Source: Telluria beijingensis (GTDB taxonomy: Bacteria; Pseudomonadota; Gammaproteobacteria; Burkholderiales; Burkholderiaceae_D). Taken from it: a stretch of 32,403 bases of DNA. Location of the stretch: positions 5,796,307 through 5,828,709 of the forward strand of contig NZ_CP132480.1 in assembly GCF_030770395.1 (NCBI RefSeq), written 5' to 3'. Below the pieces are notes generated by a model that did no database searches, was not told where the DNA came from, and saw only the letters and a program-made list of their open reading frames with translations. The position numbers and the translations under genes are program-made. Below are positions 366 to 11,512 of the stretch, piece by piece; the first letter of the stretch is position 1, and each line of letters begins with the position of its first letter.

Positions 366-2596
<2,231 letters not shown>

Positions 2597-2602
2597 TGGG
2601 TC

Positions 2603-2633
2603 GCCGGCGACGCGGTCTTTAATCGTCGCCGGC
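2603..2633. terminator. Bidirectional intrinsic-terminator-like hairpin between convergent genes
   Basis: Perfect 10-bp stem GCCGGCGACG (2603-2612) with CGTCGCCGGC (2624-2633) and an 11-nt loop containing TTTAAT. It lies just after the pobA stop and overlaps the last codons of the convergent HDOD gene, whose TAA stop (2621-2619) falls in the loop. There is no long T-run, so efficiency is uncertain. Confidence 0.5.
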
Positions 2634-3590
2634 CAACTGATCGTATATCTGCCTGGCTTCGTGTGGCAGCGCCTGTGCCGCGCGCACGAATACCGGCTGG
2701 CCGCCGCTGGCGAGCATGTGCAGCTTGGCCAGGCGGTCGGCATCGCCCAGCGCCAGCGGCAGCGCCACGGCCTCGGGATCGCCCAGCCGCGCCAGCGCGT
2801 GGCCGATCGCCGGCGGCAGTTCCCACTGGCCGGCGATGGCCCCCGAGACGAGGCGCGCGGCCTGCACCAGGCGCGCGCCGAAGGCGTCGCTGTCGGGCAT
2901 GCCGCCCGCCGGCACCAGTTGCTCGATGACGCGGAACGCCACCACCAGCCCAACGTTGTGCATCAGTCCTGCAAGATAGGCCTCGAAGGGATCGGCGCCG
3001 TGGCGCGGCGCCAGCAGGCCGGCGGCCTGCGCGCACAGTTCGGACTGGCGCCACAGCGGCGGCGCCACCAGCCGCGCCAGCGGGCCGGCCTGCTGGCTGA
3101 TGATGGGGCGGAAGGCGACCCGGGCCAGCAGCATGCGCAGGCCATTCTGGCCGAGCAGCAGCACGGCGCCTTCCAGGTTGCGGATCGGGGACGCGGGCTG
3201 GTAGTACGGGCTGTTCACCTCGCGGATTACCTCGGCCACCAGCACCGGGTCCTGCGCCACCTGCCGCGCCAGGTCGCCGGCGCCGCTATCCTGCGCGCGC
3301 AGGCTGCGCAGCAGTTGCGGGATCACGGCCGGGACCCGCGGCACCAGGGCCGCCGCGTCCTGCGGGTCGTGCGCCAGGCGCGCCAGTTCGTCGAGGATCG
3401 GGCCGTCGGCGGCGGGCAGGCCGGTGACGTGCGGGGCGATCAGCCAGTGGAAGAAGGCGAGGTCGAGGTCCGGGCAGGGAGGTTCAATGACTTCTTCCGC
3501 CGCGGGTGGATGGGCCTGGGGCGCGGTAGCGGTAACAGAGGGATCGAGCGCCTCGCGCGCGCCGAACAGCCGTGCGAACCAGCGCTTCAT
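2619..3590 (-). CDS. HDOD domain-containing protein
   Basis: Protein of 323 residues from the ATG at 3590 (MKRWFARLFGA). The frame is open for 26 more codons upstream, but those residues look non-coding and no clear ribosome site decides the start. The N-terminal 50 residues are a low-complexity linker (Ala/Pro/Glu). The HDOD domain follows: LLRSLRAQDSGAGDLARQVA, then DPVLVAEVIREVNSPYY, then NLEGAVLLLGQNGLRMLLARVAF, and a helical second half with YLAGLMHNVGLVVAF. HDOD domains are non-enzymatic relatives of HD phosphohydrolases and are usually linked to signalling and motility, often near cyclic di-GMP genes as here, with the cyclase/phosphodiesterase operon 1 kb upstream on the same strand. 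The specific role is unknown. Confidence 0.88.
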   Translation of the reverse strand: MKRWFARLFGAREALDPSVTATAPQAHPPAAEEVIEPPCPDLDLAFFHWLIAPHVTGLPAADGPILDELARLAHDPQDAAALVPRVPAVIPQLLRSLRAQDSGAGDLARQVAQDPVLVAEVIREVNSPYYQPASPIRNLEGAVLLLGQNGLRMLLARVAFRPIISQQAGPLARLVAPPLWRQSELCAQAAGLLAPRHGADPFEAYLAGLMHNVGLVVAFRVIEQLVPAGGMPDSDAFGARLVQAARLVSGAIAGQWELPPAIGHALARLGDPEAVALPLALGDADRLAKLHMLASGGQPVFVRAAQALPHEARQIYDQLAGDD

Positions 3591-3687
3591 GGGCAGGCGG
3601 GAAGGAAAGAGAGTGCGGAAAGCAAGGGCATGAAGCAATTCTACCCTGCGCACAGGCCAGGCAGGCACGCACGAATGCTAATGTGCG

Positions 3688-4557: not shown

Positions 4558-6324
4558 TCAGCCCGCCACCGTTTCCCTGGCATGCAGCCAGTCGAGCAAC
4601 TCGTCGGCAGGCAGTGGCCGGCTGAAGAAATACCCCTGCACCTTGTCGCAGCGCTGGGCCCGGACCACGTCGAGCTGCGACCGGGTCTCGATGCCCTCGG
4701 CCACGGTCTTCATGCCCAGGCTTTGCGCGACCTTGACAGTGGCTTCGATCAAGACCCGGTGGTGGGGGCTGGTATCGGCCTGGCACACGAAGGAGCGGTC
4801 GATCTTGACCGTGTCCACCGGCAGCAGGTGCAGGCTCGAGAGCGAGGAGTATCCAGTGCCGAAATCGTCCAGCGCAAGCTGGATGCCCAGCGCCTTCAGG
4901 CCGTGCAGCCGCGCCTGGATGTCCTGGTCCTGGGCAGCCAGGCTCTCGGTGACTTCGAGCTGCAGGCAGGCCGGCGGCATGCCGCTGTCGTCCAGCACGC
5001 CTTCGACGACGTCGATCCAGCCGGCCTGGCCGAGCTGGGCGCGCGACAGGTTGACCGCCATCAGGCGCGGCGCGCGCGGTCCCAGGCGCCGGCGCCAGTC
5101 GACGAAGTCGCGGCAGGCGCGCGCCAGCACGAAGTCGCCTACCGCCCCGATCAGGCCGCACTCCTCGGCCACCTGGATGAATTCGCCCGGCGGCACGATG
5201 CCGCGCTGCGGATGGCGCCAGCGTACCAGCGCCTCGACCCCGGCCGCGTGGTCGACGCCAACGTCCGGCAACAAGCCCACCACCGGCTGGTACACCACGA
5301 ACAGCTGTTCCTCGACCAGGGCCTGGCGTAGCTCGGCCTCGATGCCGGCGCGGCGTGCGGCGCGCTCGCGCATGGCCGGCTCGAACACCACGCAGCGGTT
5401 GCCGCCGGCGCGCTTGGCCTCGACCATGGCGATGCTGGCGTCGTGCAGCACGTCGTCCGGGTCGTGCTGGCCGAGGGCAGCGACGTCCTGCCCCCAGGCG
5501 AGGCCCATGCTGGCGCCGCACACGATCTCGTGGCCGCCGATCGTGTAGGGACGCGCGACCGCGTCCAGCAGGCGCAGCGCGACCCGTTCGGCGTCGGCGC
5601 GCGAGCGCATGCCGTCCAGGATCACGACGAATTCGTCGGCGCCGATGCGCGCGGCCAGTTGGCCGCTGCGCGCGCCCGCCTCGATCAGGCTGGTGGGCGG
5701 GCGCAGGGCGCCACGCAGTCGGTCGGCCAGGTGCAGCAGCAGCTGGTCGCCGCCGGCCTGGCCCAGGCTGTCGTTGAGCTGGCGGAAGCGGTCGCAGTTC
5801 AGGGTCAGCACGGCGTAATCATGGGCCGCCGCCGGTTGCGCCAGCAGCCGCAGCAACTCGTCGCGCACCGCTTCGCGGTTCGGCATCCGGGTCAGGGCGT
5901 CGGTGCGCGCAGCATTGCGCAGGCGCCGCGACAGGGTCTCCTGCTCGCGCTGGACCTCGAAGGTGGCGTCGGCCAGGGTCGCCATCAGGCGCTCGGGGTC
6001 GAGCTTCATGAGGTTGAGCGACAGCACCTGCAGCATGCCGCTGGCCGGATGGTGCACGCCTACCGGCAACCGCAGCCCTTCGCAGATCATGCCGGACGGC
6101 TCGATGAAGGCTGCCACCATGGCGGGCAGTTGCGGCGCGACCGGCGCCAGCACCTCGAACAGGTTGTCCAGGCCGTGGCTAGTGGCGAGCGGCATCAGCA
6201 GGCTGGAGGCCATCGGGTTGAGCATCTCCACCGCGCCATCCAGGCCAGTCTGGGCCAGGCCGATCGGGGCGCGGTACAGGAACTGCATCAGCGCTTCCTG
6301 GGCGTCGCCTGTTTCATGCTGCAT
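4558..6324 (-). CDS. PAS-like / degenerate GGDEF / EAL protein, probable cyclic di-GMP phosphodiesterase
   Basis: Protein of 588 residues from the ATG at 6324, which is 7 nt after AGGAG; the in-frame ATG at 6330 is too close to that site. Domain order (numbered from 6330): an N-terminal sensory domain at 10-125 shared with the cyclase encoded just upstream (EALMQFLYRAPIGLAQ), a GGDEF-like domain at 140-320 and an EAL domain at 330-585. The GGDEF signature reads GADEF (230-234), so cyclase activity is doubtful. The EAL domain keeps EAL (366-368), NLS, EVTES, DDFGTG (488-493), KID and EGIE, the residues needed for metal binding and hydrolysis. Its start lies inside the cyclase gene (overlap of 11 bp), so the two are coupled. 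It should hydrolyse cyclic di-GMP at the cytoplasmic face; no membrane segment is visible. The degenerate GADEF domain may bind GTP as a regulator, as in some composite proteins. Confidence 0.92.
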   Translation of the reverse strand: MQHETGDAQEALMQFLYRAPIGLAQTGLDGAVEMLNPMASSLLMPLATSHGLDNLFEVLAPVAPQLPAMVAAFIEPSGMICEGLRLPVGVHHPASGMLQVLSLNLMKLDPERLMATLADATFEVQREQETLSRRLRNAARTDALTRMPNREAVRDELLRLLAQPAAAHDYAVLTLNCDRFRQLNDSLGQAGGDQLLLHLADRLRGALRPPTSLIEAGARSGQLAARIGADEFVVILDGMRSRADAERVALRLLDAVARPYTIGGHEIVCGASMGLAWGQDVAALGQHDPDDVLHDASIAMVEAKRAGGNRCVVFEPAMRERAARRAGIEAELRQALVEEQLFVVYQPVVGLLPDVGVDHAAGVEALVRWRHPQRGIVPPGEFIQVAEECGLIGAVGDFVLARACRDFVDWRRRLGPRAPRLMAVNLSRAQLGQAGWIDVVEGVLDDSGMPPACLQLEVTESLAAQDQDIQARLHGLKALGIQLALDDFGTGYSSLSSLHLLPVDTVKIDRSFVCQADTSPHHRVLIEATVKVAQSLGMKTVAEGIETRSQLDVVRAQRCDKVQGYFFSRPLPADELLDWLHARETVAG

Positions 6325-7660
6325 CGGCATTCTCCTGCTGTCGCCCGGCGTGGGCGTCTAGTTCGGAGCGCCAATGGTCGACCCGGTTGCGGCCGGCGCG
6401 CTTGGCGGCATATAGCGCGCGGTCGGCCTGGGCCAGCAGCCGGTCGATGCCGCCGTCGCCATCATGGGCAATCGCGATCCCGGTGCTGACCGTGTAATGC
6501 ACCGGCTGCCCGGCCAGCATGACGGGGTGGGCCGCCACGCTGGCGCGCAGGCGCTCGGCCACCGGCAGCGCGCGCGCCAGGTCGGTCGAGGGCAGCAGCA
6601 CGGCGAATTCCTCGCCGCCGATGCGCGCAATGACGTCGACCTCGCGGAAGCTCTCGCCGAGCACGCCCGCCAGGTGGCGCAGGACGACGTCGCCCCCAGG
6701 ATGGCCATGGCGGTCATTGATGGCCTTGAAGTGGTCGGCGTCGATCACCAGCAGGGCGGTCGGGCGTGGCGCGATGCTGCTGCGGCCCAGTTCGCGCTCG
6801 GCCGCCTCGAACAGGGCGCGCCGGTTGGCCAGGCCGGTCAGGTGGTCGCGCACGGCGTCGTCGTGGCGCCGCTCGGCCAGGCCGTACTGGTCGCCGATGT
6901 CGCGCAGGATCAGGCAATAGGCGGCGCCGCCGCTCTCGCCGGGCAGCGGCTCGCGGTCAGGCAGCGGCGCGATGAGGGCGCTGCCCCAGTACATACTGCC
7001 GTCGGCGCGGCAGCGCCGCCCTTCGTCGAGCGACCAGCCATTGGCGTCCGCCTCACGCAGGCGGTCGTGGCGGTGCTCGAGCGTCATCGCATCCGGCGGG
7101 TAGAACGCCGTGTAGGGCTGGCCGACGATGTCCGGGCCGAAGCCGGTCACGCGTCCGATGCTCGGATTCCAGTCGCTCACACGCCCGTGCAGGTCGAGGC
7201 TCACCAGCGCATAGTCCTTGACCCCGGCCAGGATGGCGTTCAGCCAGGCGTCGTTCTGGCGCAGACGACGCTCGCGCCGCACCTGCTCGGTGATATCGCC
7301 GATGACCGCCATCATGCGGCCGGGGTCGAGCTTGAGCAGCGTGAGCGCGAGAATCTGCGGCACCCGCTTGCCGTCCTGGCCTGCGCTCAGGTACACATGC
7401 AGGCCGTCGCAGACCTTGCCGGACGGCTCGGCATGGTGGGCGACAAGGTTGCGCAATTCGGGCGCGACACCTTCGAGCGCCACGAACAGGTTGTCCAGGC
7501 CCCCATTGCGCGATAGGGGCATGAGCAACTGGGCCGCGACCGGGTTCATCATGGCGACCTCGCCATGGATGTCGGCCTGCACCAGGCCGATCGGCGCCAG
7601 GTACAGGAACTGCATCAGCGCCTCGTGCTCGGCGCCGAGCTGGGCCAGGTCGAGGGTCAC
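6314..7660 (-). CDS. PAS-PAS-GGDEF diguanylate cyclase
   Basis: Protein of 448 residues. The start is the GTG at 7660, which overlaps the stop of the PYP-like gene (GTGA), indicating translational coupling; no separate ribosome site is seen. Domain order: an N-terminal sensory domain at 10-125 closely matching that of the phosphodiesterase downstream (EALMQFLYLAPIGLVQ, GLDNLF, VAPEL, EPSGKVCDGL, LKLDPGRMMAV), a PAS domain at about 135-255 (NAILAGVKDYALVSLD, WNPSIGRVTGF), and a GGDEF domain at 270-435. The active site GGEEF (348-352) is intact, and RxxD (339-342) sits exactly five residues before it, the position of the inhibitory site for product feedback. It should make cyclic di-GMP from two GTP. 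No transmembrane segment is visible, so it is probably cytosolic and takes its input from the PAS domains. Confidence 0.93.
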   Translation of the reverse strand: MTLDLAQLGAEHEALMQFLYLAPIGLVQADIHGEVAMMNPVAAQLLMPLSRNGGLDNLFVALEGVAPELRNLVAHHAEPSGKVCDGLHVYLSAGQDGKRVPQILALTLLKLDPGRMMAVIGDITEQVRRERRLRQNDAWLNAILAGVKDYALVSLDLHGRVSDWNPSIGRVTGFGPDIVGQPYTAFYPPDAMTLEHRHDRLREADANGWSLDEGRRCRADGSMYWGSALIAPLPDREPLPGESGGAAYCLILRDIGDQYGLAERRHDDAVRDHLTGLANRRALFEAAERELGRSSIAPRPTALLVIDADHFKAINDRHGHPGGDVVLRHLAGVLGESFREVDVIARIGGEEFAVLLPSTDLARALPVAERLRASVAAHPVMLAGQPVHYTVSTGIAIAHDGDGGIDRLLAQADRALYAAKRAGRNRVDHWRSELDAHAGRQQENADAA

Positions 7661-8049
7661 CGCGGCTGGCGCTGGACCAGGACGTAGCGGGTGGCGGCGT
7701 CGGGCGCCGCCAGCAGCCGCAGGGCGACCTTGACCGGGCGCATGCGCAAGGTCAGCACGTAATCGATGGTGACGTCGAGCACGCTTCGCTCATCGTGGGC
7801 GTCTTCGAAGCGCTGGGCCACCATGAAATTGTTCATGCACGGCGCGACATTGGTGAACAGCGGCTGGCCCAGCACCCGCTGCGGCGACAGGCCGGCCGCC
7901 TGCGATTCGAAGGCGTTGTACTGCGTGACCTGGGTGTCGGCGCCGAAGCCGATCACGCCGAAGTCGAGCGTGTCGAGCTGTTCGGGCGTGCATTGTGCCA
8001 GGTGCGCGGCCAGGTCGGGAGCGTCGAACGCGATAGCGGTAGCGGTCAT
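7657..8049 (-). CDS. Photoactive yellow protein-like PAS protein
   Basis: Protein of 130 residues from the ATG at 8049, close to the 125 of Halorhodospira PYP. The frame stays open to ATGs at 8097 and 8142, but an intrinsic terminator occupies 8102-8131, so those starts are less likely. The chain follows PYP: LDTLDFGVIGFGADTQVTQY matches its FGAIQLDGDGNILQY, and FTNVAPC matches its FKDVAPC. With a constant offset of two residues, Cys71, Tyr44 and Glu48 correspond to the chromophore cysteine 69, Tyr42 and Glu46 of PYP; Thr50 and Arg52 are replaced by Ala52 and Leu54. The end (TIDYVLTLRMRPVKVAL) matches the last PYP strands with a two-residue insertion. In PYP the cysteine holds p-coumaric acid and the protein is a blue-light sensor. 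The gene leads an operon with a cyclase and a phosphodiesterase. Chromophore binding is unproven; it could be a non-photoactive PAS relative. Confidence 0.8.
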   Translation of the reverse strand: MTATAIAFDAPDLAAHLAQCTPEQLDTLDFGVIGFGADTQVTQYNAFESQAAGLSPQRVLGQPLFTNVAPCMNNFMVAQRFEDAHDERSVLDVTIDYVLTLRMRPVKVALRLLAAPDAATRYVLVQRQPR

Positions 8050-8074
8050 GGTGTCGAAAGCGGTAAGCTGTTGA

Positions 8075-8102
8075 GTATTAGAAATGGATGTTGGCATGTG
8101 AA
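8075..8102 (-). promoter_or_regulatory. Weak promoter candidate for the PYP-like operon
   Basis: On the minus strand TTCACA (8102-8097) is followed after 16 bp by TAATAC (8080-8075). The predicted start of transcription near 8068 would give a leader of about 20 nt before the ATG at 8049. The -10 match is poor, so this is only the best candidate in the short space left after the upstream terminator. Confidence 0.25.
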
Positions 8103-8131
8103 AAGGCGCGGTGTCAATTGTGCGCGCCTTT
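8102..8131 (-). terminator. Rho-independent terminator of the DUF1428 genes
   Basis: Perfect 9-bp stem AAAGGCGCG (8102-8110) with CGCGCCTTT (8123-8131) and a 12-nt loop. Read on the minus strand the stem ends in CGCGCCTTTTC, giving a short T-run, about 50 nt after the stop of the DUF1428 gene at 8180. It separates that gene from the PYP-like operon downstream. Confidence 0.7.
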
Positions 8132-8179
8132 CCATGTGACATTTTTTTATGCCGCGTGGCATTCCGGCACAGCAGGCGG

Positions 8180-8539
8180 TTACAGATCGACCAGGTTGTC
8201 GAATCCGCCGAAGAACATGCGCTTGCCGTCGAACGGGACGCCGCCCGGTTTCATCATGTCGGCCAGGCGCGGATCCTGCATGACTTTTTTGAGCACTGCG
8301 TCGCGGTGGCTGCGCGACTCGTAGACCGCCCAGGCCAGGATCACCGTTTCGCCGTCTTCCAGCTTGACGCTCTGCGGGAACGAGGTATGTTCGCCGGGCT
8401 TGACGTCGTCCGCGATCCACTCGCGGTATTCGAGCGCGCCATGCTCGCGCCAGACCTGGCCGGCGAGCGAGGCCTGGGCGCGGTATTCATCGAGTTTCGA
8501 GGTGGGGAGGGGAAGCACAAAACCGTCGCAATACGCCAT
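8180..8539 (-). CDS. DUF1428 family protein (copy 1)
   Basis: Protein of 119 residues, start ATG at 8539 with AGGAG 7 nt before it. The family is recognised from MAYCDGFVLPLPTSKLDEYR, EHGALEYREWIADDVKPG, TSFPQSVKLEDGETVILAW and the end MKPGGVPFDGKRMFFGGFD. DUF1428 (the YbaA group) is a small ferredoxin-like alpha/beta-barrel domain of the dimeric type; no enzymatic function is established. The gene directly upstream on the strand (8602-8961) is a paralogue of the same length, so this is a tandem duplication, followed by a good terminator. Cytosolic: no signal peptide. Confidence 0.92.
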   Translation of the reverse strand: MAYCDGFVLPLPTSKLDEYRAQASLAGQVWREHGALEYREWIADDVKPGEHTSFPQSVKLEDGETVILAWAVYESRSHRDAVLKKVMQDPRLADMMKPGGVPFDGKRMFFGGFDNLVDL

Positions 8540-8601
8540 GATGTTTCTCCTGAAGTGAGTGGTGCGCCTGTATTGACCGGAAAGCGGACGGACAAGTTTC
8601 T

Positions 8602-8961
8602 TCAGCGGTCAAGGAACATCTCGAAGCCGCCATAGATCAGGCGCTTGCCATCGAACGGCATGGCGCCCGGCTTCATCATGTCGGCCATGCGCGGGTCCTG
8701 CTCGACCTTGCGGTTGACTTCGTCACGCTTCTCGCGCGACTCATAGACGATCCACGAGAACACCACCGTTTCGCCTTCCTCCAGGTTGACGCTCTGGGGG
8801 AAGGAAGTGAGCTTGCCGGGCTTGACGTCGTCAGCGACGCATTCGCGGTATTCGAGGGCGCCGTATTCGCGCCAGATGTCGGCGCACTTGTTGCTCATCT
8901 CGCGGTATTCTTCGAGTTTCGACGTGGGAATGGGCAGCACAAAACCGTCTACGTAGGGCAT
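8602..8961 (-). CDS. DUF1428 family protein (copy 2)
   Basis: Protein of 119 residues from the ATG at 8961, behind GAGGAG. The frame continues upstream for 180 codons, but those residues belong to the non-coding frame of the PBP1A gene. The sequence MPYVDGFVLPIPTSKLEEYR, ALEYRECVADDVKPG, TSFPQSVNLEEGETVVFSW and PFDGKRLIYGGF matches copy 1 along its whole length, about two thirds identical by eye. The two copies differ mainly in the helix at residues 20-33, where this one has MSNKCADIW. It lies 62 bp upstream of copy 1, probably in one transcript. Function unknown. Confidence 0.92.
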   Translation of the reverse strand: MPYVDGFVLPIPTSKLEEYREMSNKCADIWREYGALEYRECVADDVKPGKLTSFPQSVNLEEGETVVFSWIVYESREKRDEVNRKVEQDPRMADMMKPGAMPFDGKRLIYGGFEMFLDR

Positions 8962-9026
8962 GGAAGTCTCCTCGGTAAGGTTGGACGCGCAAACCGCGTT
9001 CGTACTGACCAGCGGCATTCCGCGAG

Positions 9027-9050
9027 GTTCCCGGGGAGCGTCCCGGGAAC
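9027..9050 (-). terminator. Terminator-like hairpin after the PBP1A gene
   Basis: GTTCCCGGG (9027-9035) pairs with CCCGGGAAC (9042-9050), a 9-bp stem with a six-base loop, eight bases beyond the PBP1A stop codon. There is no T-run on either side, so it may stabilise the 3' end rather than terminate by itself. Confidence 0.45.
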
Positions 9051-9058
9051 TGCGCAGA

Positions 9059-11512
9059 TTACCACAGCGGGTTGGGGGCGGGCTGGTTTGCCGGCGGCGG
9101 CGCAGGAGGGGGCACAGGCGCGGGCGGCGCCACCTGCGGCAAGGCCTCGATGGCCGGGCGCTCGTCGAACGTGGAGGCATCGGGCGGCACTTCCTGGCTG
9201 CCGGGCGGCAGGTCGGGCGGCTGTTCCACGTGCGCCTGCTCGATGTCGATCGTGCGCTCTTCGACCGCATCGATGAACTCGGGATAGATCCAGTCCTGGC
9301 CGTCGTGCACCACGTCGTCGGGCGGCGTGCGCTCGACCGGCGGCGTCCTGGCCAGCGCCACCCGCATGTAGTCGATCCAGATCGGCATCGCCAGGGTCGA
9401 GCCGAATTCGCGCCCGCCCAGCGAACGCGGCTCGTCGTAGCCCATCCAAGACACGGCCACCACATTGCCCGCATAGCCGGCGAACCAGCCGTCGATCGCA
9501 TCGTTGGTGGTGCCGGTCTTGCCGGCCAGGTCCTGCCGTCCCAGCTGCTTGGTGGCCGCCGCGGCGGTGCCGAAGCGTGTCACGTCGCGCAGCATGCTAT
9601 CGACCACGAAGGCGTTGCGCGCGGTGACGGCGCGCCTGGCCTCGTCCTTCGCCGGCGGCGGCTGCGCTTCGAAGATGACGGCGCCATTGCCGTCCTGGAT
9701 GCGCGCGATCAGGTAGGGCTTCACGCGGTAGCCGCCGTTCGCGAACACGGCATAGGCGCCGGCCAACTGCAGCGGAGTGACGGCGCCGGTGCCGAGCGCC
9801 ATCGTGTAGTTCTGCGGATGGCGCGCCAGGTCGAAGCCGAAGTGTTCCAGGTACTGGTGGGCGAACGGCACCGACACCGCGCGCAGCACGCGCACCGTCG
9901 GCACGTTCTTCGATTTCACCAGCGCCTGGCGCAGCGTGACTTCGCCGTCGAACACGCCGTCGTCGTTCTGCGGCGTCCATGGCGCCTCAAGCGTGGCGCC
10001 CGGCAGCTCGATCGGTGCGTCCAGGATGCGGGTGGTCGGCCCATATCCCTTCTCGAGCGCGGCCGAATACACGAAGGGCTTGATGCTCGATCCCGGCTGG
10101 CGCCAGGCCTGGGTCACGTGGTTGAACTTCTGCAGGTTATAGTCGAAGCCGCCCACCAGCGCGTGGTAGGCGCCGCTGTCGGCGTCGATCGCGACGAAGG
10201 CCGCCGCCACCTCGGGCACCTGGGTGATGGACCAGGCGCCGTCCTTTCCCTGGCTGATGCGCACCACGGCGCCCGGGGCGATCCTGATGCCCTCGCGCGC
10301 CTTGGGCGACAGGGCGGCAGCCACGAATTTCAGGCCGGCGCCCTTGATGACGATGTCCTCGCCCGACAGGGTATCGACCAGCACTTCCTGGGCGCTGGCC
10401 TCGAGCACCATGGCCGGCAGCAGGCCATCGCTGCTGGGCCGTTTCTGCAGCGCCTCGACGATCGCTTCCTCTCGCTCGTCAAGGTCGGCCGGCAGTTCGA
10501 TGCGCGCTTCGGGCCCGCGGTAGCCGTGGCGACCATCGTACGCCAGCACATTGCGCCGCACCGAGTCATACGCGGCATCCTGCTCGGCCGCCAGGATGGT
10601 GGTGGTGACGACGATCCCGCGCGTGTACGACTCTTCGCCGAACTGCTGGTACACGGTCTGGCGCGCCAGTTCGGCCACGTACTCGGCGCGGGTGGCGTAG
10701 GACTGGCCGGCATCGCGCTTGACGCGCAGGGGTTCGGCCAGCGCTCGGCGGTACTGCGCCTCGTCGATCTCGCCCAGTTCGCGCAGGCGCTTGAGGATGG
10801 CGTGCTGGCGCGCCTGCGCGCGCTTGGGGTTCGATACCGGATTGGTGCGCGCCGGGTTTTGCGGCAGGCCGGCCAGCATCGCCGTCTCGGCCAGGGTCAA
10901 CTGGTCGAGGGTCTTGCCGAAATAGCTGCGCGCCGCACTCGAGAAGCCGTAGGAACGCTGGCCCAGGAAGATCTGGTTCATGTACAGCTCGAGGATCTGG
11001 TCCTTGGTCAGCGAATCCTCGATCTTGTAGGCCAGCGCGATCTCGGTCAGCTTGCGGGTAATGGTCTTCTCGTTGGTCAGGAAGATGTTGCGCGCCACCT
11101 GCATTGTGATGGTCGAGGCGCCCTGGCGGAAGCCGCCGCGCAGGTTGGCGCGCGCCGCGCCCAGCGCGCGGATGAAGTCGATGCCGCCGTGTTCATAGAA
11201 ACGCGTGTCTTCGATCGCCAGCACAGCGCTCTTCATCATGGCCGGGATCTTTGCGATCGGCACGAAGTCGCGGTGCTCGACCCCGAACTGGCCGATCAGC
11301 ACATTGTCGGCAGTGTAGATGCGCAGCGGGATCTTGGGACGGTAGTCGGTGACGGCGTCGATCGGCGGCACCTTGGGCAGGATCGCGGTCATGATATACA
11401 CGGCGGCGCCAGCCACGGGCAGCAGCAGTGCGGCGCAGGCGATCAGGATGAAGGCGTGGATGCGCTTCATGCCGAACAGCGTCTTGCCCGACTTCTTGTT
11501 GGTATCGCTCAC
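9059..11512 (-). CDS. mrcA: Penicillin-binding protein 1A (bifunctional transglycosylase/transpeptidase)
   Basis: Protein of 817 residues taking the GTG at 11512 (GTG AGC GAT ACC), which follows GAGAG at 7 nt. ATGs at 11470 and 11548 are alternatives; the open frame further upstream overlaps the divergent transporter and is not coding. Order: a short basic cytoplasmic tail, a membrane anchor at about 18-42 (AFILIACAALLLPVAGAAVYI), the GT51 transglycosylase with EDTRFYEHGGIDF (Glu101) and QGASTITMQVARN, an OB-like insert, and the transpeptidase with SSIK (Ser475), SKN, and KTGTT (Lys665). The tail after the KTG box is long and proline-rich (APVPPPAPPP). It polymerises and cross-links peptidoglycan in the periplasm. 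It stands alone here and is divergent from the OPT transporter, with about 150 bp between them holding a symmetrical TATAAT. Confidence 0.95.
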   Translation of the reverse strand: MSDTNKKSGKTLFGMKRIHAFILIACAALLLPVAGAAVYIMTAILPKVPPIDAVTDYRPKIPLRIYTADNVLIGQFGVEHRDFVPIAKIPAMMKSAVLAIEDTRFYEHGGIDFIRALGAARANLRGGFRQGASTITMQVARNIFLTNEKTITRKLTEIALAYKIEDSLTKDQILELYMNQIFLGQRSYGFSSAARSYFGKTLDQLTLAETAMLAGLPQNPARTNPVSNPKRAQARQHAILKRLRELGEIDEAQYRRALAEPLRVKRDAGQSYATRAEYVAELARQTVYQQFGEESYTRGIVVTTTILAAEQDAAYDSVRRNVLAYDGRHGYRGPEARIELPADLDEREEAIVEALQKRPSSDGLLPAMVLEASAQEVLVDTLSGEDIVIKGAGLKFVAAALSPKAREGIRIAPGAVVRISQGKDGAWSITQVPEVAAAFVAIDADSGAYHALVGGFDYNLQKFNHVTQAWRQPGSSIKPFVYSAALEKGYGPTTRILDAPIELPGATLEAPWTPQNDDGVFDGEVTLRQALVKSKNVPTVRVLRAVSVPFAHQYLEHFGFDLARHPQNYTMALGTGAVTPLQLAGAYAVFANGGYRVKPYLIARIQDGNGAVIFEAQPPPAKDEARRAVTARNAFVVDSMLRDVTRFGTAAAATKQLGRQDLAGKTGTTNDAIDGWFAGYAGNVVAVSWMGYDEPRSLGGREFGSTLAMPIWIDYMRVALARTPPVERTPPDDVVHDGQDWIYPEFIDAVEERTIDIEQAHVEQPPDLPPGSQEVPPDASTFDERPAIEALPQVAPPAPVPPPAPPPANQPAPNPLW

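What the first reader, a model, noticed from the sequence alone, without database searches (positions are those of the whole stretch)
4558..8049. PYP-like protein, diguanylate cyclase and phosphodiesterase in one overlapping operon
Three genes share an operon and overlap by 4 and 11 bp: a 130-residue PAS protein that matches photoactive yellow protein, including the equivalents of Cys69, Tyr42 and Glu46 at a constant offset; a cyclase with intact GGEEF; and a phosphodiesterase with intact EAL. Both enzymes carry the same unusual N-terminal domain (EALMQFLY.APIGL), which could be the docking site for the PYP-like protein. This would be a discrete three-protein blue-light or ligand switch for cyclic di-GMP. 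The sequence match is direct; the light response is inference.
Basis: partly seen in the sequence, partly recalled or inferred. Interest (0 to 1): 0.78.

Follow-up and report, generated by a model that had tools for sequence, protein, structure and literature searches.

The report
Photoreceptor-like operon with possible docking domain
A Massilia-type bacterium carries a relative of a well-known blue-light receptor beside two enzymes that make and destroy a signalling molecule, and comparison with relatives suggests that the extra front domain shared by both enzymes is where the receptor binds, although whether this strain's receptor senses light is unproven.

Summary
At 4558-8049 (minus strand) a 130-aa PYP homologue, an NTD-PAS-GGDEF cyclase and an NTD-GGDEF-EAL phosphodiesterase overlap, in a Massilia-type genome. 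The PYP keeps the Tyr42/Glu46/Cys69 equivalents but scores 76 bits against the TIGR02373 cut-off of 143; its features fit 'clade C' PYP (Xing 2022), whose GGDEF neighbourhood is published. New here: the shared ~120-aa N-terminal domain (NTD), with no Pfam match, is a predicted PAS fold that tracks clade-C PYP. Of 294 family genomes 59 have both, 1 NTD only, 0 PYP only; 79 of 79 named NTD loci (the best of 171) and 11 of 11 NTD plasmids have PYP beside it. The NTD carries GGDEF, GGDEF-EAL, histidine kinase or no enzyme: what stays with PYP is the NTD. I read it as a PYP-docking PAS. Against: the modelled pair is unresolved (pTM 0.56), no coevolution was detected, one plasmid has PYP without NTD, one genome NTD without PYP. 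This genome lacks the PYP-type coumarate-CoA ligase and a tyrosine ammonia-lyase, so light sensing here is open.

The parts
7657..8049 (-). clade-C-type photoactive yellow protein homologue, 130 aa; Tyr44/Glu48/Cys71 = Hhal Tyr42/Glu46/Cys69
   Evidence: Y/E/C present in 104 of 104 distinct clade-C PYPs parsed from relatives
6314..7660 (-). diguanylate cyclase NTD-PAS-GGDEF, 448 aa, GTG start, 4-bp overlap with the PYP gene
7277..7660 (-). NTD of the cyclase (residues 1-128): proposed PYP-docking PAS domain, no Pfam match
6887..7207 (-). PAS domain of the cyclase behind the NTD (residues 152-258)
   Evidence: PF08448, 23.4 bits, cut-off 23.1
6383..6856 (-). GGDEF domain with GGEEF and RxxD (residues 269-426)
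4558..6330 (-). c-di-GMP phosphodiesterase NTD-GGDEF-EAL, 590 aa (588 aa from the second ATG at 6324)
5947..6330 (-). NTD of the phosphodiesterase: second copy of the proposed docking PAS
5395..5907 (-). GGDEF domain of the phosphodiesterase, motif GADEF (probably not a cyclase; inference)
   Evidence: motif read in the translation
4615..5337 (-). EAL domain of the phosphodiesterase, EALVRW and DDFGTG present
   Evidence: translation
8074..8102 (-). sigma-70-like promoter match (TTCACA-17-AATACT) 25 bp before the PYP start; consensus match only
8050..8179 (.). 130-bp gap between PYP and a DUF1428 gene; in many Massilia relatives a divergent coumarate-CoA ligase gene sits here

Best explanation
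This is a three-protein c-di-GMP switch built round a clade-C PYP. Shown by sequence: PYP family homology with the chromophore-pocket triad intact, overlapping genes for a GGEEF cyclase and an EAL phosphodiesterase, and a shared NTD predicted to be a PAS domain. Inferred: PYP binds the NTD (PAS on PAS) of each enzyme, and its change of state passes through the NTD's C-terminal helix to cyclase and phosphodiesterase, probably in opposite senses, so that one receptor sets c-di-GMP. Inferred and least certain: the input is blue light through p-coumarate on Cys71, the chromophore being loaded in this lineage without the dedicated ligase (for instance by another aryl-CoA ligase and imported coumarate).
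For: Phylogenetic profile: PYP in 59 of 294 family genomes, NTD in 60 of 294; both in 59, NTD only in 1 (G072), PYP only in 0. Order sample of 399: strong NTD hits (E<1e-20) in the same 11 genomes as clade-C PYP (6 of them in the family); G415, with four PYPs of another type, has none. All 79 named NTD loci returned (best of 171 matches) carry clade-C PYP; all 11 plasmid records with NTD have PYP directly before it, among them Rhizobium, Methylobacterium, Sphingomonas and Polymorphobacter. 140 of 141 PYP genes parsed have an NTD gene next, 42 with a 4-bp overlap; the 141st (L079) has one too, missed by start choice; some genomes are in the set twice. The output changes while the NTD stays: histidine kinase in 4 loci of two other families, fused NTD-PAS-NTD-GGDEF-EAL (L063, L074), NTD-PAS without GGDEF in M. 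timonae, M. arenae and HP4, bare 125-aa NTD in L091. NTD models as PAS (pLDDT 88). A PYP-type coumarate-CoA ligase occurs in 36 of 59 PYP genomes against 1 of 235 others. PYP dN/dS is 0.11-0.28 among this genome, HP4, M. arenae and M. timonae.
Against: AlphaFold on a PYP-NTD pair: each half well modelled, but pTM 0.56, so no confident contact, and two-PAS matches in the PDB fit only at about 14-23 A. Coevolution scores do not exceed re-pairings within close clusters (102 pairs, 30 re-pairings). One plasmid PYP (H1, CP099603.1) has no NTD near it and one genome has NTD without PYP (L120). Inheritance of the operon as a block could give much of the profile, and few independent events lie behind it. 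No TAL and no PYP-type ligase in this genome.
Confidence: 0.55

Rival explanations
1. The module works through the same PYP-NTD contact, but in this lineage it no longer senses light with p-coumarate: PYP acts as an apo-protein or senses another ligand or redox state through Cys71.
For: No TIGR02372 ligase and no TAL in this complete genome; 23 of 59 PYP genomes of the family sample lack the ligase yet keep the gene.
Against: All 104 distinct clade-C PYPs parsed from relatives, ligase-less ones included, keep Y42, E46 and C69, the positions that matter for coumarate; one ligase of this genome scores 369 bits against the benzoate-CoA ligase family (cut-off 375) and might substitute.
Confidence: 0.25
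2. The NTD does not bind PYP; it is an ordinary sensory or dimerising PAS, and NTD enzymes travel with PYP only because the operon is inherited as a block.
For: No confident pair model, no coevolution detected; cyclase-, phosphodiesterase- and kinase-type NTDs need only 3 label changes on the tree, so few independent events.
Against: Catalytic domains are lost or replaced while the NTD stays with PYP; the eight stretches with only the other PYP type (L080-L087) have no NTD.
Confidence: 0.15
3. In this strain the module is a decaying remnant: ligase lost, cyclase domain already lost in close relatives.
For: HP4 and M. arenae lack the GGDEF domain and the ligase; M. timonae lacks the GGDEF domain and has no ligase at this locus (its whole genome was not searched).
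Against: All three window ORFs are intact with the catalytic motifs named above; PYP dN/dS 0.19-0.28 against these relatives.
Confidence: 0.05

Closest known systems
Clade C photoactive yellow proteins next to GGDEF proteins (Xing, Gumerov, Zhulin 2022, PMC9664959)
   Same: Burkholderiales single-domain PYP with Y42/E46/C69, without F92, F96 and W119 but with M100, beside cyclase genes; this window is of that kind.
   Different: The Results and Discussion that I read name GGDEF/EAL neighbours, not a shared N-terminal domain, nor kinases carrying it. Figures and data sets were not seen.
Predicted pyp operons with GGDEF/EAL (Dohmen 2025, PMC12826048)
   Same: GGDEF in 29, pCL in 42 and TAL in 7 pyp operons (Table 2); c-di-GMP proposed as output.
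   Different: No docking domain in the parts read (abstract, sections 3 part 1, 4, 5, 6, 8, 10); Massilia is not named in the main text.
Idiomarina loihiensis PYP with GGDEF protein (as told in PMC9664959 and PMC12826048; original not read)
   Same: Single-domain PYP thought to act on an adjacent cyclase; blue light lowers biofilm formation.
   Different: Clade A PYP; whether its cyclase has an NTD was not tested.
Ppd of Thermochromatium tepidum (PYP-phytochrome-GGDEF-EAL; as told in the same papers)
   Same: PYP input to c-di-GMP enzymes.
   Different: Covalent fusion with phytochrome; here separate proteins.
Rhodobacter capsulatus PYP-binding protein (Kim 2021; seen only as a reference)
   Same: A named binding partner of a PYP.

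Membership tests
PYP family (Cys69-containing homologues, Xing 2022) | Cys69 with Tyr42 and Glu46 | tested here: met
   Cys71/Tyr44/Glu48 align
PYP family (Cys69-containing homologues, Xing 2022) | sequence and predicted fold of PYP | tested here: met
   E 1e-14 to PDB PYPs; the PYP half modelled for a relative (L048) fits 2qj7, rmsd 1.7, TMt 0.90. The authors' PAS_PYP HMM was not available
TIGR02373 photo_yellow equivalog | score over 143.05 bits | tested here: not met
   76.1 bits; Xing 2022 states that this model covers about 20% of PYP homologues
PYP clade C | F92, F96 and W119 not conserved, M100 kept, mostly Burkholderiales, GGDEF neighbour | tested here: met
   I, L, Y and M at these positions in the alignment; neighbours. 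No tree with the authors' clades was made
Functional PYP photoreceptor | p-coumarate thioester and photocycle | not testable with these tools
   needs protein; dedicated ligase and TAL not found
Diguanylate cyclase | GGDEF domain over cut-off with GG[DE]EF | tested here: met
   activity not tested
EAL phosphodiesterase | EAL domain over cut-off with EAL and DDFGTG motifs | tested here: met
   activity not tested
PAS domain (NTD) | Pfam PAS model match | tested here: not met
   window NTD no match at E<=1; of 26 NTDs one matches PAS_4 at E 0.003
PAS domain (NTD) | predicted PAS fold | tested here: met
   (NifL, FixL, DosP, LOV, PYP; best E 6e-5, TM about 0.4-0.6)

The most novel reading that the evidence does not exclude
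The NTD is the dedicated receiver domain of clade-C PYPs: a PAS adaptor without a Pfam model that spread among a cyclase, a phosphodiesterase and a histidine kinase, so that one small diffusible receptor can drive any enzyme bearing it. It would be the first defined PYP partner domain that works across output types.
Probability: 0.55. Interest if true: 0.78.

Novelty: new variant of a known kind. Interest (0 to 1): 0.6.

Why it matters
How PYPs pass on their signal is called an important gap in the abstract of PMC12826048 (2025), and Xing 2022 states that no clade C member had been thoroughly characterised. A 120-residue domain that tracks clade-C PYP in alpha- and betaproteobacteria and sits on three kinds of output gives a concrete, cheap binding test, and a possible plug-in module for optogenetics. 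The Massilia lineage without the chromophore ligase also gives a natural test of whether PYP can work without dedicated loading.

Tried and rejected
Residue coevolution between PYP and NTD: mutual information with APC on 102 distinct pairs. Top scores (0.22) lie within the range of 30 re-pairings inside clusters at 0.7 identity (mean of the top 0.23). Against looser clusters (0.6) ranks 2 to 5 exceed every re-pairing, which kinship may explain. No claim is made from it, nor from the distance-matrix correlation of 0.77 in the same call.

Pair structure: in loci where the PYP stop lies in frame with the next gene I modelled both as one chain; pTM 0.56, no contact claimed.

TAL in this genome: the single PF00221 hit is HutH beside hutU, hutG and hutI. 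Other ligases of this genome that touch TIGR02372: acetate, two long-chain fatty acid, one exosortase-linked, one benzoate-CoA-like; one stretch (L034) gave no named family at the limit used, and further weak places were not examined.

The Fisher values ignore kinship and are not used as probabilities.

Rows set aside: hits of E 1e-3 to 1e-5 (24 of 36, 4 of 15 and 3 of 5 genomes with a match) were taken as general PAS similarity for short coverage or low score; a judgement, not tested one by one. Limits: NTD searches scored only the best 10 or 14 candidates per genome, another the best 10, the ligase search the best 6; and, for this genome, one search scored all. The search for related loci kept 80 of 171 matches (79 loci), the closest ones. 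L040-L139 and L140-L218 overlap in genomes. In the NTD tree 4 of 13 added rows (L255, L271, L276, L277) were cut at the protein start because the motif was not found, and the phosphodiesterase group is one clade in only 62% of bootstrap trees. Of six NTD genes away from PYP, L127 lies at a contig edge.
Full report
What is there. The window lies in a complete 6.0-Mb, one-contig genome. On the minus strand three genes overlap: PYP-like 7657-8049, cyclase 6314-7660, phosphodiesterase 4558-6330. Pfam: cyclase PAS (152-258) and GGDEF (269-426); phosphodiesterase GGDEF (142-312) and EAL (332-572); nothing in the first ~130 residues of either. These first residues are 49% identical between the two enzymes over 122 positions.

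The PYP. It matches solved PYPs at E 1e-14 over nearly its full length and the NCBI PYP equivalog at 76 bits, below the 143-bit cut-off. Xing et al. 2022 (PMC9664959; abstract, Results and Discussion read) say that this model covers about 20% of PYP homologues and define the family by Cys69. Cys71, Tyr44 and Glu48 here equal Cys69, Tyr42 and Glu46. The changes at F92, F96 and W119 with M100 kept are those they give for clade C. Dohmen et al. 2025 (PMC12826048; abstract and sections 3 part 1, 4, 5, 6, 8, 10 read) report GGDEF in 29 pyp operons, with 113 operons analysed, and give Ser47, Leu49, Ala50, Leu52 and Thr97 as family consensus; this PYP has Ser, Ala, Ala, Leu and Thr there (alignment).

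Conservation of the set. In the family sample 59 of 294 genomes have PYP, 24 of 27 in the genus. Of 60 stretches fetched, 52 hold the clade-C PYP, and an NTD protein follows it in all 52. By my count: 35 have the full set PYP, NTD-PAS-GGDEF, NTD-GGDEF-EAL; 10 have the cyclase without an NTD phosphodiesterase beside it; 2 only the phosphodiesterase; 2 a fusion; 2 NTD-PAS plus phosphodiesterase; 1 a bare NTD. The other eight stretches (L080-L087) hold the other PYP type, about 30% identical, next to coumarate-CoA ligase and in two cases a HAL/TAL-family lyase, without NTD. In L071 and L137 both types sit side by side. Methyloversatilis has lyase, ligase, PYP, cyclase, phosphodiesterase in a row (L192, L199, L202, L204; whether the lyase is a TAL was not tested). 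Plasmids of Methylobacterium, Sphingomonas and Rhizobium have PYP-cyclase-AMP-binding ligase; that of Indioceanicola has pyp-pcl-lyase-PYP-cyclase.

The NTD. A 26-row alignment has invariant F18, Y20, G33, N39, L45-P48, N57 and others. The window NTD has no Pfam match and the best among 26 is E 0.003; no PDB sequence matches the profile at E<=10. AlphaFold gives a PAS arrangement between an N-terminal and a C-terminal helix (pLDDT 88, pTM 0.76); Foldseek finds PAS domains (NifL, FixL, DosP, LOV, PYP) at modest scores. A profile comparison of NTD with PYP is weak (probability 5%), so the NTD is not simply another PYP.

Co-occurrence. NTD and PYP: 59 both, 1 NTD only, 0 PYP only, 234 neither, of 294. 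The NTD-only genome G072 has an NTD-PAS-GGDEF gene with, upstream, a frame that reads like a TetR regulator (label by eye). In the order sample of 399 the 11 genomes with strong NTD are the 11 with clade-C PYP, and G415, with four PYPs of the other kind, has no NTD. In a phylum sample of 309, strong NTD hits occur only in two genomes, both of the own genus. No phage record matched. Of 72,556 plasmid records 13 have a PYP match and 11 an NTD match; in all 11 PYP lies directly before the NTD; the two others are CP099603.1 (clade-C-like PYP, 64% identical, no NTD near) and Niveispirillum (30% identity).

What varies. The part behind the NTD changes: PAS-GGDEF; GGDEF-EAL; HisKA-HATPase in L250, L251, L252 and L255, the kinases of L251 and L252 being near-identical; fused NTD-PAS-NTD-GGDEF-EAL in L063 and L074; NTD-PAS without GGDEF in HP4, M. 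arenae and M. timonae (272-276 aa); bare NTD in L091. L089 also has a short ORF, but there the GGDEF lies in another frame right behind, so it looks like a frameshift. In the tree of 89 NTDs the output types need 3 label changes in all, with many unresolved forks and a midpoint root: an old duplication onto different outputs is the simplest reading, its direction unknown. Six NTD genes lie away from PYP (L121, L123-L127; L127 at a contig edge) in genomes that still have PYP elsewhere, as expected for a diffusible receptor. Motifs are mostly kept: GG[DE]EF in 92 of 96 distinct cyclases over 380 aa, RxxD as well in 90; E[AV]L in 90 of 90 distinct phosphodiesterases.

Chromophore. A PYP-type coumarate-CoA ligase (over 250 bits; the next group is at or below 130) occurs in 36 of 59 PYP genomes and 1 of 235 others, G125, where it lies at a contig edge. 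In the genus 18 of 24 PYP genomes have it; this genome, HP4 (G263), M. arenae (G286) and three more do not. Yet all 104 distinct clade-C PYPs parsed keep the pocket triad, and PYP dN/dS among the window, HP4, M. arenae and M. timonae is 0.11-0.28. So the gene looks selected without the dedicated ligase; how, or whether, the chromophore is loaded is unknown.

Mechanism. Shown: gene order, domains, motifs, co-occurrence, changing outputs. Inferred: PYP binds NTD; the signal passes down the C-terminal helix; the two enzymes respond in opposite senses. The pair model did not settle the contact and coevolution was negative. My confidence in the whole explanation is 0.55.

Novelty. The PYP-GGDEF/EAL link in clade C is in print. 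Seven literature searches of open-licence PMC papers, by title and abstract listing, and the sections read of two papers plus passages of a third (PMC13250908), showed no mention of the shared domain. Figures, supplements and subscription papers (among them the 2012 PYP family study and the R. capsulatus partner paper) were not seen, so it may be described there.

Noticed in passing
L249 (G415) 6636-11023, minus strand: Four PYP paralogues of another type in two pairs, two with C-terminal extensions, around a coumarate-CoA-ligase-like gene, beside a gene that reads like a BLUF protein (label by eye).
   Followed up: partly
L040, L041, L142 cyclase genes: Three Massilia relatives of the window have lost the GGDEF domain of the cyclase while keeping NTD-PAS next to the phosphodiesterase.
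   Followed up: partly
L091 7551-8314: PYP followed by a free-standing 125-aa NTD with no enzyme.
   Followed up: partly
window 8180-8539 and about 8602-8970, minus strand: Two tandem DUF1428-type genes upstream of PYP (the first by Pfam; the second by eye); DUF1428 genes also lie upstream in many relatives, with the ligase gene between them and PYP.
   Followed up: no
window 1412-2596, plus strand: A gene that reads like 4-hydroxybenzoate hydroxylase (pobA, label by eye): the strain may handle coumarate-derived aromatics.
   Followed up: no
window 2619-3668, minus strand: HDOD protein downstream of the phosphodiesterase (108 bits), found downstream in 18 of 23 fetched same-genus stretches (L040-L062).
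   Followed up: no
L165: A PYP-cyclase-phosphodiesterase set on a contig labelled Gemmatimonadaceae MAG; its NTDs fall among those of betaproteobacteria, so perhaps misbinned.
   Followed up: no
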